Assembly (NCBI RefSeq): GCF_009827295.1
Contig: NZ_WTYD01000001.1
Location: 620,001 to 684,000 of the forward strand
Source: Qipengyuania pelagi
Lineage (GTDB): Bacteria; Pseudomonadota; Alphaproteobacteria; Sphingomonadales; Sphingomonadaceae
Length of the DNA: 64,000 bases
Reading direction: 5' to 3'
Shown here: positions 1,114-7,294 of the stretch, one piece after another
How positions within the stretch are numbered: the stretch's first letter is position 1
Layout: each line of letters opens with the position of its first letter
The notes under the pieces: model-generated
Databases searched by the model: none
What the model was told of the DNA's origin: nothing
What the model saw: the letters and a program-made list of their open reading frames with translations, nothing else
Translations under genes and position numbers: made by a program

Positions 1114-4041
1114 ATGGCTCTTACGAAAATATCGGTGCGCGGCGCGCGCGAACACAATCTCAAGGGTGTCGATATCGATCTGCCGCGCGATGCGCTGATC
1201 GTGATCACCGGGCTTTCGGGCTCTGGCAAGTCCAGTCTGGCCTTCGATACGATCTATGCGGAAGGGCAGCGGCGCTATGTGGAATCGCTGAGCGCTTATG
1301 CGCGGCAATTCCTCGAGATGATGCAGAAGCCCGATGTCGAACATATCGACGGGCTGTCTCCCGCCATCTCGATCGAACAGAAGACGACGAGCCGCAATCC
1401 GCGTTCCACGGTCGCGACCGTGACCGAAATCTACGATTATATGCGCCTGTTGTGGGCGCGTGTCGGCGTGCCTTATTCGCCCGCCACCGGCCTGCCGATC
1501 GAAGCGCAGACGGTATCCAATATGGTCGATCGCGTGATGGCGCTGCCCGAAGGCACGCGGCTCTATCTGCTCGCGCCGGTGGTGCGCGGGCGCAAGGGCG
1601 AATACCGCCGCGAACTCGCCGAATGGCAGAAGGCGGGCTTCACCCGCGTGCGGATCGATGGCGAGATATACCCGATCGAGGAAGCGCCCGCGCTCGACAA
1701 GAAGTTCAAGCATGATGTCGAGGTGGTGGTCGATCGCCTGGCGGTGAAGGAAGGCATCGAGACGCGCCTGGCCGACAGTTTCGAACAGGCGCTGCGGCTG
1801 GCCGATGGTCTCGCCTATGTCGACCTTGCCGATGGCGTGGTGCCGGGCCGCGAGAATGAGGGCGAGGGAGGGGGCGCGATGAAAGGCGCGGGCCTGCCCG
1901 CCAATCGTATCGTCTTCTCCGAAAAATTTGCCTGTCCGGTCAGCGGCTTCACCATCGAGGAGATCGAGCCGCGCCTGTTCAGCTTCAACGCGCCGCAGGG
2001 CGCCTGCCCGACCTGCGACGGCATCGGCGAAAAGCAATTGTTCGATCCCCAGCTGGTCGTCCCCAACGAGGCGCTGACCCTCAAGAAAGGCGCCGTGGTG
2101 CCCTGGGCGAAATCGAACCCGCCTTCGCCCTATTACATGCAGGTGCTCGCCAGCCTCGCCAAGGAATACGAGTTCAGCCTCGAGACCCCGTGGGAGGATT
2201 TCGACAAGGAAATCCGGGACATCATCCTGTTCGGCACCAAGGGCCGCGCCATCCCGCTCACCTTCAAGGACGGGCGCAAGAGCTACACGGTCAAGAAGCC
2301 GTTCGAAGGCGTGATCGGCAATCTCAACCGCCGCCTGCTCCAGACCGAAAGCGCCTGGATGCGCGAGGAATTGTCCAAGTTCCAGACCGCGCAGCCCTGC
2401 GAGACCTGCAACGGCAAGCGCCTCAACGAAAAGGCGCTGGCGGTGAAGATCCCAGGTCCTTCTGGGGTCACCGACATCGCCACCCCCACCAAGATGAGCG
2501 TCGCCGATGCCAAGGCCTGGTTCCTCGGCCTGCCCGAGCATCTGAACGACCAGCAATCGCAGATCGCCAAGGCCATCCTCAAGGAAATCAACGAGCGGCT
2601 GGGCTTCCTCGACAATGTCGGGCTCGACTACCTCAATCTCGACCGGACCAGCGGCACGCTGTCGGGCGGGGAGAGCCAGCGCATCCGCCTCGCCTCGCAG
2701 ATCGGCAGCGGGCTGTCGGGCGTGCTCTACGTGCTCGACGAGCCCAGCATCGGCCTCCACCAGCGCGACAACGACCGGCTTCTGGAAACGCTCAAACGCC
2801 TGCGCGATCTCGGCAACACGGTGATCGTCGTGGAGCATGACGAGGATGCGATCCGTGCCGCCGATTACGTCGTCGATCTCGGCCCCGGCGCGGGCGTGCG
2901 CGGGGGCGAGGTCGTGGCGGAAGGCACGCTGAAGCAGGTGCTCAAGTCCAAGAAATCGCTCACGGCGGACTACCTCACCGGGCGGCGCGAGATCGCGGTT
3001 CCGAAGGAACGCCGCAAGGGCAATGGCAAGCAGATCACTGTCCATGGCGCCCGCGCGAACAATCTGAACGACGTCACCGCCTCGATCCCGCTCGGGACCT
3101 TCACCTGCGTCACCGGCGTATCCGGCTCGGGCAAGTCGAGCTTCACCATCGACACCCTCTACGCCGCCGCCGCGCGCACGTTGAACGGCGCGCGCATCGT
3201 GGCGGGCGCGCATGACAAGGTCACCGGGCTCGATAATTGCGACAAGGTGATCGAGATCGACCAGTCCCCCATCGGCCGCACGCCGCGATCGAACCCCGCC
3301 ACCTATACCGGCGCCTTCACCCAGATCCGCGACTGGTTCGCGGGCCTCCCCGAGAGCCAAGCGCGCGGCTACAAGCCCGGCCGCTTCAGCTTCAACGTCA
3401 AGGGCGGCCGGTGCGAGGCGTGCCAGGGCGACGGCCTGATCAAGATCGAGATGCACTTCCTGCCCGACGTCTACGTCACCTGCGAGGAATGCGGCGGCAA
3501 GCGCTACAACCGCGAAACGCTGGAGGTGAAGTTCAAGGGCCACTCCATCGCCGACGTGCTCGACATGACGGTGGAGGATGCGGAAACCTTCTTCGAAAAC
3601 GTCCCCCCCATCCGCGACAAAATGCACATGCTGAACGAGGTGGGCCTCGGCTACGTCAAGGTCGGCCAGCAGGCGACCACCCTGTCGGGCGGCGAGGCGC
3701 AGCGGGTGAAGCTCGCCAAAGAATTAAGCCGCCGCAGCACCGGACAGACGCTCTACATCCTCGACGAGCCGACCACCGGCCTGCATTTCGAAGACGTGCG
3801 CAAGCTGCTCGAAGTGCTGCACCGGCTGGTGGACCAGGGCAACAGTGTGGTGGTGATCGAGCACAATCTGGATGTCATCAAGACGGCGGATTACCTGCTG
3901 GACCTTGGGCCGGGCGGCGGCGTGCGCGGCGGCGAGATCGTGGCCAAAGGCACGCCGGAAGAGGTCGCCGCAACGGAGGCGAGCTTCACGGGGCGGTATC
4001 TCAAGCCGATGCTGTTGCGGGTGAAAGAGCTGGCTCAGTAG
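1114..4041 (+). CDS. uvrA: Excinuclease ABC subunit UvrA
   Basis: This 975-residue protein is the damage-recognition ATPase of nucleotide excision repair; it loads UvrB at bulky DNA lesions. It has the two ABC modules of the family. The first Walker A motif is [10 protein letters not shown] near residue 32. The signature and Walker B of module one are LSGGESQR and [10 protein letters not shown], and of module two LSGGEAQR and [10 protein letters not shown]. The second zinc finger is complete (CEAC and CEEC pairs). In the first zinc module one pair reads CPVS instead of CPxC, while the partner pair CPTC is present; CPVSG is, from memory, common in alphaproteobacterial UvrA. Length is normal for the family. 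A LexA box and a possible EcfG promoter lie upstream, so SOS control is expected. Confidence 0.97.
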
Positions 4042-4097
4042 TTGATTTAGCAGCGTCTGGCTGCGTATCAGAAGGCGTCAACACCTAGGGGATAGTA

Positions 4098-5207
4098 GTG
4101 GAAACCGAAGTCACAAAAATCGCTCCTGAGCAGTTGCTTTTAGACCCCAACAACTATCGATTCCTCGATATCCCCGGATATAGAAAAGTCGCCAAGCGCG
4201 AACGCTACGGCGAGGATGGCGTTCAAGCTAAGGCGTTGGACCTTCTTACGTCCCATCAGGGCTTCGATCTTGAGTCGTTGAGGGATTCGATCGCGAGCAA
4301 TGGCTTCGTCCCATTAGACCAATTGGTAGTTGAAGAGTTCGATGAGCAGGACAACAAGAAGCGCTATTTGGTCATTGAAGGGAATCGCCGCGCCGCAGCG
4401 GTGAAGACACTTCTACGGGATCAAGAGGATGGTTCGGTTGATCTTTCTGACGAGGTCAAAAGCTCATTAAGCGCTCTGCCAGTCATAATTGTGAGTGGTG
4501 ATGAAAAGGAAAAAGACAATTTTCACAAGACTCTCATGGCTATTCGCCATGTTTCTGGGATCCGTGAATGGGGCGCGTATCAGCAAGCAAAGCTTGTGGT
4601 CGAGATGTACGAAGACGAGGCGGAGAGCTTTTCCCAAGTTGCGAAGCAAATTGGGATAAGCCCTCAAGAGGTAGGAAGGCGATACCGGGCATCGAAGGCG
4701 CTCAACCAGATGGAGAGCGACGATGAATTTGGCGTTCATGCAAGCCCGAAGTTGTACAGCTTTTTCCATGAAACAGTCTCCTCCCCACAGCTACGCGAAT
4801 GGCTTGATTTCTCAAACGATACATACACGGCTCAGAATGATGAGAGTCGAACATTGTTTTATCAGCTCCTTAGCCCGTCTGAGGTGGATGGTGAGAAATA
4901 CGACCCAAAACTTCAGAATGCCAATCGCCAGATTCGACAATTAAAACAGATAGTCGAAAGCGATGCCGCGCTCGCGCTATTGTCTGATCCAGAGAAATCA
5001 TTCGATGAGGCTGTGAAGGTTGCGGACGATGAAGCTGAGACGGATCAATCTGGTGCCACAGAGTATGCTCTCAGGCAGGCTCTCAAAGGACTTCGTAAAC
5101 CGGGCATTGATGCTTGGAATGATCCGACCGATCGAACGAAGCAACTTTGGGCAGAATTAAGAGCAGTCTTCGATGCGATCGATAAGGTTCTTGAGGATGA
5201 TGAGTGA
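4098..5207 (+). CDS. ParB/Srx-fold DNA-binding protein, first gene of a ParB-Mrr pair
   Basis: This 369-residue protein has a ParB/sulfiredoxin-like N-terminal domain at about residues 55-135. Its hallmark EGNRRAAA (residues 94-101) corresponds to the nucleotide-binding loop of ParB-like proteins. A helix-turn-helix-like stretch follows at about 175-205 (VAKQIGISPQEVGRRYR). The C-terminal part is acidic and unassigned. It is too remote from chromosomal ParB to be a partition protein, and no parA is nearby. The start is GTG with a good AGGGGA ribosome site. Its end overlaps the next gene, a nuclease, by GTGA, so the two are translationally coupled. Base composition is close to half G+C by eye, well below the neighbours, which suggests transfer. 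A role in sensing or marking foreign DNA for the nuclease is inference. Confidence 0.75.
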   Translation: METEVTKIAPEQLLLDPNNYRFLDIPGYRKVAKRERYGEDGVQAKALDLLTSHQGFDLESLRDSIASNGFVPLDQLVVEEFDEQDNKKRYLVIEGNRRAAAVKTLLRDQEDGSVDLSDEVKSSLSALPVIIVSGDEKEKDNFHKTLMAIRHVSGIREWGAYQQAKLVVEMYEDEAESFSQVAKQIGISPQEVGRRYRASKALNQMESDDEFGVHASPKLYSFFHETVSSPQLREWLDFSNDTYTAQNDESRTLFYQLLSPSEVDGEKYDPKLQNANRQIRQLKQIVESDAALALLSDPEKSFDEAVKVADDEAETDQSGATEYALRQALKGLRKPGIDAWNDPTDRTKQLWAELRAVFDAIDKVLEDDE

Positions 5208-6079
5208 AGAACGCGAATATCGTCGATGCCCTTGAGGCAGAAATTGGCATCGACGGCGAAGCTCGAAACTTAACTGACGCGGTGACCGCTGCGCTTTGCC
5301 AAGGCGGTTACGACGAAATTGATGCTGTCGGTTTGGCTGCGACACGTCGATCAGCAATCGTAAAGATCATCGACGACCGCCAACGATCCGCCCAAGCTGA
5401 TGGCTTGGTTCATACGCTCGAAGTTGTAGGCGCTTTTCGATCTCACGTCGGCGGAGCCGGTAGGCCGGAGGTCGCTGACGACGACAAGCTTTCTCTGGCG
5501 AAACAGGGGCGACGCCAAATCGCATCCATTTTGGCTTGCATGAAAGCACTTGACCATAACCAGTTTGAATTATTCGGTGCCGCATTGATCCGGTCTCTTG
5601 GAGCATCTGTGTCGGAGAAAACTAGGCAAACCGGCGATCAAGGAATAGATTTTGTCGGCACAACGCGTTTGGGCGAGCTACTTTCGCACCCTAAAAATAT
5701 CTTTAAGCTCGCGCATGATATGCAAATTGATTTCATTGGGCAGGCCAAGCATTATCCAAATAGACCGCTAAATCCATCTACAGTTAGAGAACTTGTTGGT
5801 AGTTTGGAGCTCGCGAGATCACGACATTTCTCGAACGACGATTTCTGTTTGCTTGAGGACCTGTCACTAAAGTCTTTCAGCCCAGTTTTTGCGCTTCTAA
5901 TAAGTACAGGACCTGTAACGGAAGGTGCCCGCTCTGTTGCTGAAAAGTCAGGTATAATAATTCGTTCTGGAGACCAAATCGCGACGTATTTGGCTGATTT
6001 GGGAGTCGGTATAGTCCCAGAGACGGGGGGGTTTTCCGAGGCGGTATTTAAAGACTGGATGCTCCAATCGATTCACTGA
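5204..6079 (+). CDS. Mrr-like PD-(D/E)XK restriction endonuclease
   Basis: This 291-residue protein carries a C-terminal nuclease domain of the Mrr type at about residues 118-270. The pattern is FELFGAALI with helix Glu122, then GDQGIDF with Asp149, then IGQAKHY with Gln180 and Lys182. This is the E...D...QxK arrangement of Mrr_cat enzymes, which cut DNA and are often methylation-dependent or invader-directed. STVRELVGSLELA follows, typical of the helix after the active site. The N-terminal 110 residues are helical and unassigned. It starts with GTG overlapping the stop of the ParB-like gene (GTGA) and has GAGGAT upstream. Low G+C content and the position between conserved genes point to an acquired defence module. 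Substrate specificity cannot be read from the sequence. Confidence 0.78.
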   Translation: MKNANIVDALEAEIGIDGEARNLTDAVTAALCQGGYDEIDAVGLAATRRSAIVKIIDDRQRSAQADGLVHTLEVVGAFRSHVGGAGRPEVADDDKLSLAKQGRRQIASILACMKALDHNQFELFGAALIRSLGASVSEKTRQTGDQGIDFVGTTRLGELLSHPKNIFKLAHDMQIDFIGQAKHYPNRPLNPSTVRELVGSLELARSRHFSNDDFCLLEDLSLKSFSPVFALLISTGPVTEGARSVAEKSGIIIRSGDQIATYLADLGVGIVPETGGFSEAVFKDWMLQSIH

Positions 6080-6497
6080 GAGGCCGGTCCGACTCAACGC
6101 AAAACTCTGTCTTACACCCCTCGGACCAATATTCCTCTCTGGCCCCTCCTCCACGAACCCGAGAGGCACCCCTGTCCATACCGTCCCCGACCTGTCGGCT
6201 AACCCCAAGCCGACTAAGCACGGGGCCCTTGAGGCGTGGCAAATTCATGCCGACGCAGGCCGCATCGGGAAGCGCGCTGCGCCTGATCCTGGGCGATTGC
6301 TTCATTAGTTTAGGACCAGACAGTGCTGCTTACCAGGCTGTTCCCTTAGAATGACGGCGACCTGTTGCACAGGACACTCTATCACGTTGTCAAATCCTCC
6401 GCGTTTCGCCAAGCTATCTACGATCTAAAAAAACTGTCCTACAACCCCCAAATGCCATACCTGCCTCGGTTCCTTTCCTCACACGGAGCATGGAACC
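6080..6497. other. Non-coding stretch downstream of the ParB-Mrr pair
   Basis: About 420 bases hold no convincing gene on either strand. Codon statistics look random and base composition is intermediate between the low-G+C insert and the surrounding chromosome. It probably contains the right-hand junction of the acquired segment. I found no integrase, tRNA end or clear direct repeat marking an attachment site. Confidence 0.5.
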
Positions 6498-6694
6498 ATA
6501 GCCGACACGCCCGAAATCCCGAGCTTCTCGCCGACAATCCCGCTGCCGCGCAGCGCTATCTGCGGATGGTCGCGGCGGTGGGTGGGGTGCCCGATGTGGG
6601 CGATGCGGTGGACGATCTCGTCCTCGAAGCGCTCCAGGACGCGTTCGGGGAGAATGGCGCGGGGGTTCCGGTGGTCGGTCGGGGCCGGTCCTGA
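6498..6694 (+). pseudogene. Possible remnant of a small gene
   Basis: From about 6514 to the stop at 6692-6694 one frame shows the high third-position G+C of real genes here and reads ELLADNPAAAQRYLRM and onwards. No suitable start codon lies in that frame. A plausible beginning (ADTPEI) lies in a different frame after ATA at 6498 where ATG would be expected. This looks like a small gene that lost its start and shifted frame, perhaps when the neighbouring segment inserted. No family is recognised. It could instead be chance coding-like sequence. Confidence 0.3.
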
Positions 6695-6793
6695 TGAGGA
6701 TCGTTTAGCGTTCGTGGCGAGCCGTGCGTTCGCGCTGGGCCGCCCTTAGCGCCTATCGCGCAATAAAGGGGGCAGAGCTTTTCTACCCCACCC

Positions 6794-7294
6794 TCAATCC
6801 AGCAGCGCCAGCTCCACCGTGCCGCTGCCGCGCTGGATCAGGCCGAGTTCGGTGGCGGCGGCGCGGCTTACGTCGAGGATGCGGTTGCCGTGGAAGGGGC
6901 CGCGATCGTTGATGCGGACGGTCACGGTCTTGCCATTGCGGGGGTTGGTGACCTCGACCAGCGTGCCGAAGGGCAGGGTGCGGTGCGCTGCGGTCATCGC
7001 GTGCATGTCGAACTTCTCGCCGCTCGCGGTGCGGCGGCCCTGGAACTTGGCGCCGTAATAGGAGGCGGTGCCGCTGCCGATCGCGCGCGCGACCGGGGCT
7101 TCCTCGATCGGCGGATCGAACGTGTCGAGATCGACCGCTCCGGCGGCGGGCGCGGAAGGCTGGGGAAGGGCGGAATGCGCCGTGAAGGCGGCGGCGAAAT
7201 GCGCTTCGCTCACGCGCTCGGCCGGGGTGGCGGCGGTGGCGGGGCTGGCAATGATCGCGGCAAGAGCAAAGGAACGAAATACGCGTTTGGACAT
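6794..7294 (-). CDS. rlpA: RlpA-like double-psi beta-barrel lipoprotein/lytic transglycosylase family protein
   Basis: This 166-residue protein begins with a cleavable signal sequence (FALAAIIASPATAATP). It has a Pro/Ala-rich linker and a double-psi beta-barrel domain at about residues 72-162. Family motifs are GTASYYG, then RTASGE, then HRTLPFGT and VRINDRGPF, where the Asp is a conserved active-site residue. RlpA proteins act on denuded peptidoglycan in the periplasm, often at the septum. This copy has no C-terminal SPOR domain and no obvious lipobox Cys, so its septal targeting is uncertain. It lies downstream of argG on the same strand with a 160-base gap. Confidence 0.85.
   Translation of the reverse strand: MSKRVFRSFALAAIIASPATAATPAERVSEAHFAAAFTAHSALPQPSAPAAGAVDLDTFDPPIEEAPVARAIGSGTASYYGAKFQGRRTASGEKFDMHAMTAAHRTLPFGTLVEVTNPRNGKTVTVRINDRGPFHGNRILDVSRAAATELGLIQRGSGTVELALLD

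What the first reader, a model, noticed from the sequence alone, without database searches (positions are those of the whole stretch)
4098..6079. Coupled ParB/Srx-fold and Mrr-like nuclease pair: candidate two-gene defence system
Two genes overlapping by GTGA encode a ParB-like protein (EGNRRAAA, then a helix-turn-helix) and an Mrr-type nuclease (Glu122, Asp149, Gln180-x-Lys182). They sit alone in lower-G+C DNA between uvrA and chromosomal genes, without a methylase, parA or integrase. Known Mrr-type enzymes restrict foreign or modified DNA. A ParB-fold partner could be a nucleotide-dependent DNA clamp that recruits or licenses the nuclease. The pairing is seen directly; the defence role is inference.
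Basis: partly seen in the sequence, partly recalled or inferred. Interest (0 to 1): 0.72.

Follow-up and report, generated by a model that had tools for sequence, protein, structure and literature searches.

The report
ParB-like sensor paired with Mrr nuclease
Two overlapping bacterial genes make a DNA-clamp-like protein and a DNA-cutting enzyme that travel together and sit in a chromosomal spot where related bacteria keep many different anti-virus genes, so they are probably an undescribed variant of a known type of anti-phage defence.

Summary
The pair is real: a 369-aa ParB-fold protein (4098-5207) and a 291-aa Mrr-type nuclease (5204-6079), overlapping by GTGA. (1) In all 17 other loci examined with a close, unfused ParB relative, an Mrr gene lies directly downstream (titles include Proteobacteria, Chloroflexi, Acidobacteria, Pedosphaera); the two proteins' distances co-vary (r = 0.93, 15 intact pairs). 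(2) The pair is patchy, and the 92%-identical relative G404 has an empty site. The uvrA-rlpA interval is a variable hotspot: 23 of 24 measurable genomes hold 1.9-6.5 kb there, and 11 of the 18 whose low-G+C genes I scanned hit PADLOC defence families. The ParB belongs to a clan whose partner changes by clade: Mrr; another nuclease-like protein, often with a methylase; a PDC-M38 ATPase fusion; or the PD-lambda-5 methylase (the last two confirmed by PADLOC). Predicted folds: ParB/KorB/Noc clamps, and MspJI/AspBHI modification-dependent endonucleases. Best reading: a ParB-fold DNA sensor that positions or licenses an Mrr nuclease against foreign DNA, without its own methylase. Context supports defence well; clamp action, nucleotide use and target are inference. 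Verdict: new variant of a known kind.

The parts
4098..5207 (+). Gene A: ParB-fold protein, 369 aa, GTG start; N-terminal ParB/Srx-like domain, helix-turn-helix, helical C-terminus
   Evidence: ORF; PADLOC PDC-M38A E=8e-55 (profile positions 15-322 of 715) and PD-Lambda-5_A E=1.5e-13; TIGR00180 weak, 21.4 bits against cut-off 58.45; predicted fold closest to KorB/ParB/Noc
5204..6079 (+). Gene B: Mrr-type PD-(D/E)XK nuclease, 291 aa, GTG start
   Evidence: Pfam PF04471 E=5e-10; predicted fold closest to the catalytic part of MspJI/AspBHI
5204..5207 (+). GTGA stop/start overlap of the two genes (suggests translational coupling)
   Evidence: sequence; a 4-nt overlap also in L002, L006, L008, L009, L010, L013, L014 and L055
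4377..4400 (+). Codons for EGNRRAAA (residues 94-101), the position of the ParB nucleotide-binding P-motif
   Evidence: falls on AGERRWRA of the host's own canonical ParB in a weak local hhalign match (probability 22%, E=0.0009); E94, G95, R97, R98 and A100 invariant in 53 aligned sequences
4575..4715 (+). Helix-turn-helix region of gene A (about residues 160-206)
5567..5749 (+). Catalytic motif of gene B: Glu122 (5567-5569), Asp149 (5648-5650), Gln180-x-Lys182 (5741-5749)
   Evidence: D149, Q180, K182 invariant in 59 rows, E122 nearly invariant; DQGIDF...GQAK aligns with DGGVDF...GQAK of MspJI (E=0.0065)
4011..6793 (.). Variable cargo interval between uvrA and rlpA; replaced by about 120-127 bp in close relative G404
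   Evidence: blastn of window against L045: 1-4010 and 6794-13348 map to nearly adjacent sequence; tblastn gap 120 bp
1114..4041 (+). uvrA, fixed left border of the hotspot
   Evidence: ORF, named by eye; found with rlpA on one stretch in 24 of 29 genus loci
6794..7294 (-). rlpA-like gene, fixed right border of the hotspot
   Evidence: ORF, named by eye; a match in 31 of 31 genus genomes searched, own included

Best explanation
The two genes are one mobile anti-phage or anti-plasmid unit. Gene A is the sensor: a ParB-fold protein with a DNA-binding helix-turn-helix that engages some feature of incoming DNA (a site, a modification, or a replication or topology state) and probably changes state with a bound nucleotide, perhaps as a sliding clamp. 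Gene B is the effector: an Mrr/MspJI-type PD-(D/E)XK nuclease that cuts DNA when positioned or licensed by gene A. Self-protection does not come from a dedicated methylase; it must come from gene A's target choice or from host methylation. Shown here: the pairing, co-inheritance, conserved catalytic residues, predicted folds, the defence hotspot, and the change of partners across the ParB clan. Inferred: defence activity itself, nucleotide use, clamp formation, physical interaction, and the target.
For: Adjacency in 17 of 17 other loci with a close unfused ParB, found by searching with gene A alone (16: L002-L014, L055, L056, L057; plus L105), overlapping by 1-4 nt in 11 of the 14 pairs with a clear start, window included. 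ParB and Mrr distances correlate r = 0.933 over 15 intact pairs, 0 of 5000 Mantel permutations as high. Hotspot: 24 measurable genus genomes, one empty and 23 occupied; 11 of the 18 occupied loci whose low-G+C genes were scanned hit PADLOC families at E <= 1e-4. The pair sits at the same uvrA site in L008, L055, L056 and L057, in both orientations. ParB clan with partner type tracking clade: 4 label changes on the tree, the minimum possible; shuffled mean 20.7. That clan includes PD-lambda-5 (6 of 6 group IV proteins hit its A models, one tested partner its B model) and PDC-M38 (2 of 2 tested), and PD-lambda-5 is experimentally protective (PMC9519451, passages). Folds. Other loci hold R-M or phage genes beside the pair: NotI-type nuclease with D12 methylase (L010), D12 with PDDEXK (L012), N6/N4 methylase (L011), Vsr and integrase (L002), terminase (L005).
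Against: No functional data. No PADLOC model matches gene B strongly (best PDC-S02, 24 bits), so the pair is not itself a catalogued system there. 7 of the 18 scanned hotspot loci had no PADLOC hit, and no random loci were scanned as a control. Scanned neighbours in L007 (trypsin-like) and L013 (no hit) are not defence genes. ParB's canonical ENxxR motif is not recognisable in gene A (by eye), so CTP hydrolysis and a ParB-type clamp are uncertain. The window and L055 pairs are about as diverged as uvrA, so between those two genomes vertical descent is not excluded.
Confidence: 0.66

Rival explanations
1. Type IV-like, modification-dependent restriction: gene B alone recognises and cuts modified foreign DNA (as MspJI, AspBHI or E. 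coli Mrr do), and gene A is only a regulator of expression or activity, as proposed for DndB.
For: The five Foldseek matches of gene B at E <= 0.001 are MspJI and AspBHI chains (VIA); no methylase beside the pair in the window; DndB, a ParB-superfamily protein, is described as a transcriptional regulator (PMC10853773, PMC12704722, passages read).
Against: The MspJI similarity covers about residues 95-291, the catalytic part, and no reader domain was recognised by Pfam in the N-terminal third, a part the structural rows barely test. Gene A is the more conserved half (Mrr more diverged in 104 of 105 comparisons), and related ParB clades keep gene A while the partner differs, which suits a core sensor better than a repressor.
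Confidence: 0.2
2. Restriction-modification-like unit relying on a host or neighbouring methylase: gene A checks methylation of a site and lets gene B cut unmethylated DNA, the methylase being supplied in trans (CcrM or a linked enzyme).
For: Related ParB units carry a methylase beside them (L058, L059, L060, phages L082-L084) and PD-lambda-5's second gene is one. 5 of 16 tested pair loci have a methylase in the fetched flank: L002, L010, L011, L014 by tblastn and L012 by Pfam; L006 has a weak match. The host encodes N6_N4 methylases, one CcrM-like by eye.
Against: The linked methylases are of different classes and positions and in L010 belong to a NotI-type pair. The other 10 tested loci gave no hit with nine methylase queries, though that search also missed the L012 enzyme, so absence is not proved, and L003, L004, L009 have short flanks.
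Confidence: 0.2
3. Toxin-antitoxin or abortive unit: gene B is a self-toxic nuclease and gene A its neutraliser, released on infection.
For: Two overlapping genes, nuclease second. L055 keeps gene A intact while gene B carries an insertion.
Against: L008 keeps gene B intact while gene A is split by a frame break, the opposite of what an antitoxin predicts, though L008 is a MAG and the break may be an assembly error. A large, conserved, ParB-clamp-like gene A is unlike known antitoxins (recalled).
Confidence: 0.12
4. Not defence: a chromosomal or mobile-element maintenance operon (partition-like or regulatory).
For: ParB fold; some members sit in phage-like surroundings (L005 terminase; L014 on a viral contig).
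Against: No parA beside it; a canonical ParB exists elsewhere in the genome; TIGR00180 score far below its cut-off; gene A constantly paired with a nuclease and, in this family, at a defence hotspot.
Confidence: 0.05

Closest known systems
PD-lambda-5 (Vassallo et al. 2022; PADLOC PD-Lambda-5_A and _B)
   Same: ParB-like gene A, N-terminal part similar (19 models, best E=1.5e-13); two-gene anti-phage unit; experimentally protective in E. coli (PMC9519451, passages).
   Different: PD-lambda-5's second gene is a methyltransferase (PADLOC PD-Lambda-5_B also scores as MTase_II); here the second gene is an Mrr nuclease. The A models have 428-613 positions, and matches lie within residues 6-200 of gene A.
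PADLOC candidate PDC-M38 (PDC-M38A/B)
   Same: Best profile match of gene A (E=8e-55 over residues 11-320); groups with the Mrr branch in the tree (100/94).
   Different: Members here are about 730 aa, ParB fused to an AbiLi/AriA-like ATPase (E=5e-257 to PDC-M38A), followed by PDC-M38B; other PDC-M38A models match the ATPase half alone. No Mrr.
ParB + nuclease-like + methylase units of P2-like phages (Wphi gp98-gp96-Mth and relatives)
   Same: ParB of about 360-400 aa followed by a gene of about 300-370 aa with a DGGxD...Q motif.
   Different: Second protein has no Pfam or PADLOC match, its profile match to Mrr is not significant (hhalign probability 0.7%), and a DNA methylase gene adjoins.
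Mrr / MspJI / AspBHI modification-dependent endonucleases
   Different: Those carry their own reader domain in one protein (recalled); here none was recognised and a ParB-fold partner is encoded.
ParB/Noc/KorB CTP-gated DNA clamps
   Different: No ParA beside it, sequence below the ParB family cut-off, ENxxR region not recognisable.

Membership tests
PD-lambda-5 | ParB-like A component | tested here: inconclusive
   PADLOC PD-Lambda-5_A E=1.5e-13, N-terminal part only; true members match full length, up to E=6e-255
PD-lambda-5 | DNA methyltransferase B component | tested here: not met
   Second gene is Mrr_cat; no methylase ORF seen between uvrA and rlpA
PDC-M38 (PADLOC) | ATPase-bearing A component and PDC-M38B partner | tested here: not met
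   Gene A is 369 aa and matches profile positions 15-322 of 715 only; gene B does not hit PDC-M38B at E <= 1
Type IV restriction, Mrr family | Mrr_cat PD-(D/E)XK domain with catalytic residues | tested here: met
   PF04471 above cut-off; residues conserved
Type IV restriction, Mrr family | Recognition domain (Mrr_N winged helix or SRA-like) in the same protein | tested here: inconclusive
   No Pfam hit to such a domain; structural rows barely test residues 1-105
Type IV restriction, Mrr family | Cuts modified DNA only | not testable with these tools
   needs biochemistry
ParB/Spo0J partition proteins | ParB family score over cut-off and ParA partner | tested here: not met
   TIGR00180 21.4 bits against cut-off 58.45; no parA beside it
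ParB-CTPase fold superfamily | ParB/Srx fold with nucleotide-binding P-motif | tested here: met
   fold searches; GNRR falls on GERR of host ParB, weak alignment
ParB-CTPase fold superfamily | NTP binding or hydrolysis | not testable with these tools
   needs binding assay; ENxxR motif not recognisable by eye
Anti-phage defence system | Defence-island or hotspot association and patchy distribution | tested here: met
   no random-locus control
Anti-phage defence system | Measured protection against phage or plasmid | not testable with these tools
   no experiment

The most novel reading that the evidence does not exclude
ParB-fold DNA clamps form an unrecognised class of immune sensors: one conserved nucleotide-gated, DNA-loading protein coupled to interchangeable effectors (Mrr nuclease, a second nuclease-like family, PDC-M38 ATPase, PD-lambda-5 methylase). 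In the Mrr branch the clamp itself tells self from non-self without any dedicated DNA modification, by loading on and spreading along foreign DNA and licensing the nuclease there.
Probability: 0.35. Interest if true: 0.82.

Novelty: new variant of a known kind. Interest (0 to 1): 0.62.

Why it matters
ParB-type NTP-switch clamps are known for chromosome segregation, and a 2025 survey (PMC12704722, abstract and passages) found many orphan versions with unexplained roles. A clan with a constant ParB part and clade-specific partners, one branch of which is the experimentally protective PD-lambda-5, makes the question 'do DNA clamps act as immune sensors?' directly testable with a two-gene unit that has no methylase of its own. 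The uvrA-rlpA hotspot is also a ready source of undescribed candidate defence genes.

Tried and rejected
Reading the pair as a partition locus: rejected (no parA beside it, weak TIGR00180, host ParB elsewhere). Reading it as PD-lambda-5 or PDC-M38: rejected as membership because the methylase or ATPase parts are absent, kept as kinship. Viral-contig scan with the single protein: 8 pattern matches, no relative; with the alignment one locus. Plasmid collection: gene B had no match, gene A 4 distant ones; phage collection: gene A 11 records, all under 60% identity; gene B was not searched in phages. Solved-structure sequence searches gave no ParB match for gene A and only a marginal MspJI match for gene B. 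One alignment of 43 cargo and 2 pair proteins was not used for scanning because the tool would not report per member. The stretch 6104-6305 was first taken for a boundary element or RNA; no Rfam or tRNA match, and the alignment with L055/L056 suggests, by eye, the remains of a small gene. No sigma-70-like promoter and no terminator on the pair's strand was found by consensus, which says little in this group. Repeats flanking the cargo: none convincing. Global hhalign of gene A with host ParB was meaningless.

Limits of the counts. PADLOC and Pfam were run on 20 of 43 low-G+C cargo ORFs (18 of 23 occupied loci) and on no random loci. The low-G+C filter (<= 0.575) and the non-overlap choice of ORFs are mine. 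Of 31 genus genomes with rlpA, 29 of the 30 others were fetched (not G422); 5 of the 29 lacked uvrA on the stretch. The occupied intervals also hold apparently chromosomal genes (LuxR-type regulators and others by eye), so not all their length is cargo. The tree used the first 330 residues and left out L008 (split), and hits with other or unclear partners: L098, L099, L101, L102, L116, and weak or distant ones (L022-L024, L061, L062, L086-L088). Group II labels for L058, L060, L085 and L096, and group IV methylases other than L114's, are by eye. The distance test left out damaged L008, L011 and L055. The 10 neighbours were picked by eye.
Full report
WHAT IS THERE. Gene A (4098-5207, 369 aa) and gene B (5204-6079, 291 aa) overlap by GTGA and lie between uvrA (1114-4041) and an rlpA-like gene (6794-7294, minus strand), both named by eye, in DNA of 0.46-0.54 G+C against about 0.57-0.70 in most of the first 20 kb. 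Gene B is over the Pfam cut-off for Mrr_cat. Gene A is only weakly ParB by Pfam and NCBIfam, but it matches PADLOC's candidate PDC-M38A (E=8e-55, profile positions 15-322 of 715) and 19 PD-Lambda-5_A models (best E=1.5e-13).

THE PAIR IS CONSERVED. The protein database holds 409 relatives of gene A and 104 of gene B at E<=0.001. A pattern scan of one genome for each of 84,980 species gave 12 loci, and a viral-contig scan one; family and phylum samples gave more. In each of the 17 loci with a close, unfused gene A other than the window (L002-L014, L055, L056, L057, L105), an Mrr gene lies directly downstream. Three are damaged: L055 has gene B split by an insertion with a transposase-like ORF (by eye), L008 has gene A split, and L011 has gene B short (161 aa). 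Overlap of 4 nt is seen in nine of the 14 pairs (window included) whose start is clear, 1 nt in two, gaps of 3-5 nt in three; four more have unsure starts. Over 15 intact pairs, ParB and Mrr distances correlate at r=0.933 with 0 of 5000 permutations as high; Mrr is the more diverged in 104 of 105 comparisons.

IT IS PATCHY AND SITS IN A HOTSPOT. Family sample: 9 of 397 genomes have any match, 4 of them strong (own, G162, G358, G033). Genus: strong only in the own genome among the 10 same-genus genomes listed and 27 further ones. Order: 12 of 396, two strong; phylum: 16 of 398, two strong unfused plus four fused. The close relative G404 (L045) aligns at 92% and 91% on either side of window 4010/6794, with 127 bp between: an empty site. 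I took 29 of the 30 other genus genomes with an rlpA match; 24 held uvrA and rlpA on one stretch. One is empty (120 bp) and 23 hold 1.9-6.5 kb; in 18 of these at least one ORF of G+C 0.54 or less, without a chromosomal look, lies on the uvrA side (by eye). The intervals also hold apparently chromosomal genes. The neighbouring rlpA-argG interval varies only from 139 to 1097 bp over 26 measured loci.

THE HOTSPOT HOLDS DEFENCE GENES. From the 23 occupied loci I listed 43 low-G+C ORFs and scanned 20 of them from 18 loci. PADLOC hits at E<=1e-4 in 11 loci: DRT UG13a (L047), DRT UG17 (L068), DzbA (L050), dCTPase (L051), PDC-M55C/HEC-05 (L052), AbiLi with AbiLii (L066), MTase_II with a BglII-type endonuclease by Pfam (L067), dGTPase (L075), 'beta' (L071), AriA/Old-like (L064; generic AAA similarity), and a weak PD-T4-10_B (L048). 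Seven loci had none (L049, L053, L054, L069, L072, L073, L076), although L049 has a Schlafen AlbA_2 domain and L072 a weak NB-ARC match. Five occupied loci were not scanned (L063, L065, L070, L074, L077). No random-locus control was run. The pair itself occupies this site in the window, L008, L055, L056 and L057, in L056 and L057 in the opposite orientation to uvrA; two other Erythrobacter loci with the pair (L006, and L009 on a 6.2-kb contig) show no uvrA in the DNA held.

OTHER SURROUNDINGS. Outside the hotspot the pair lies beside a NotI-type endonuclease and D12 methylase (L010), a D12 methylase and PDDEXK protein (L012), an N6/N4 methylase (L011), Vsr, a C5 methylase and an integrase (L002), a phage terminase (L005), or on a viral contig (L014); scanned neighbours in L007 and L013 are not defence-like. 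With nine methylase queries, tblastn found a methylase in four of 16 loci (L002, L010, L011, L014) and a weak match in L006; L012's was missed by it and found by Pfam. So a linked methylase is not constant, but the negative loci are not proved free of one.

A CLAN WITH CHANGING PARTNERS. More distant ParB relatives fall into groups by partner: (I) Mrr; (II) a nuclease-like protein of about 300-370 aa with a DGGxD...Q...W..K-type motif, in several cases with a C5 or D12 methylase beside it, including Wphi gp98-gp96-Mth and two other P2-like phages; (III) ParB-ATPase fusions of 724-731 aa, which PADLOC calls PDC-M38A (E=5e-257 and 7e-270 in the two tested), followed by PDC-M38B (one tested, cut by the locus end, E=2e-40); (IV) longer ParB proteins that PADLOC calls PD-Lambda-5_A (6 of 6, E=2e-28 to 6e-255), followed by a D12-type methylase, PD-Lambda-5_B in the one tested (E=7e-80). 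L115 (516 aa, 49 bits) has a different Mrr-like neighbour. On a 42-row tree the partner labels need 4 changes, the minimum possible, against 20.7 on shuffles; group III branches beside or within group I with support 100/94. Groups I and II need 2 changes each, so a single origin of each is not shown, and several long branches make deep placements unsure.

CONSTRAINT. Window against L055, codon positions 1/2/3 identical: gene A 0.976/0.995/0.762, uvrA 0.909/0.930/0.699, gene B residues 1-138 0.862/0.928/0.609. Gene A is thus more constrained than UvrA at similar silent divergence. It also means that these two genomes may share the pair by descent.

LITERATURE. PD-lambda-5 is validated and described as a compacted prophage RM+Abi system with a methyltransferase (PMC9519451, passages). 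A survey of the ParB-CTPase fold reports HNH, UPF0020 and methylase fusions and ATP/CTP/GTP binding, and the word Mrr does not occur in its main text (PMC12704722, abstract and passages). A BREX survey notes ParB-HNH (GmrSD) nucleases (PMC12839542, passages). An earlier analysis lists a HEPN family in operon with a 'ParB nuclease and DNA methylase' (PMC3710099, passages). Searches for parb-like + mrr + defence system (0 papers) and parb + mrr + restriction endonuclease + defense (11 papers; passages of two read; nine seen as listing only) showed no description of this pair; PDC-M38 gave 0 papers. Many subscription papers and all bioRxiv preprints were not searchable.

CONCLUSION. The most likely mechanism is a ParB-fold DNA sensor licensing an Mrr/MspJI-type nuclease. 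It is kin to, but not a member of, PD-lambda-5 and PDC-M38, and so a new variant of a known kind. The clamp and nucleotide steps remain to be shown.

Noticed in passing
window 4011-6793 and L045-L077: The uvrA-rlpA interval is a variable defence hotspot of the genus: 23 of 24 measurable genomes occupied; no integrase noticed by eye in the cargo. A paper search for uvrA + defence + hotspot + integration gave 8 papers, seen as listing only, none evidently about it.
   Followed up: partly
L049, L053, L069, L072, L073, L076 (uvrA-rlpA interval): Low-G+C cargo genes whose scanned member had no PADLOC hit (AlbA_2 protein, phosphoribosyltransferase-like plus SLOG-like pair by eye, 387-aa protein, 842-aa NTPase with weak NB-ARC match, UDG-like protein): candidate undescribed defence genes.
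   Followed up: no
L082-L085, L058-L060, L094-L112: A second nuclease-like family (alignment A6) without Pfam or PADLOC match in the members scanned follows ParB in P2-like phages and several bacteria, with a methylase adjoining in L058-L060 and L082-L084.
   Followed up: partly
L059, L096, L100: Three genomes of the family carry a group II ParB unit next to what reads by eye as lepA (EF-4), suggesting a second cargo site (in L096 the neighbour is read in another frame).
   Followed up: no
window 6104-6305: Apparently decayed remains of a small gene that looks open in L055 and L056 (74% identity), beside the cargo on the rlpA side (reading by eye).
   Followed up: partly
L055 7477-9310: Gene B of the most similar pair is interrupted by an insertion with a transposase-like ORF while gene A stays intact.
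   Followed up: partly
L086 (plasmid pTiAF3.44 of Agrobacterium larrymoorei): A distant ParB relative lies beside a DEAD/DEAH-box helicase gene and a dndABCDE cluster.
   Followed up: no
G000:C4 (L120, L121): The own genome has further ParB-family genes on contig 4, possibly a plasmid partition locus.
   Followed up: no
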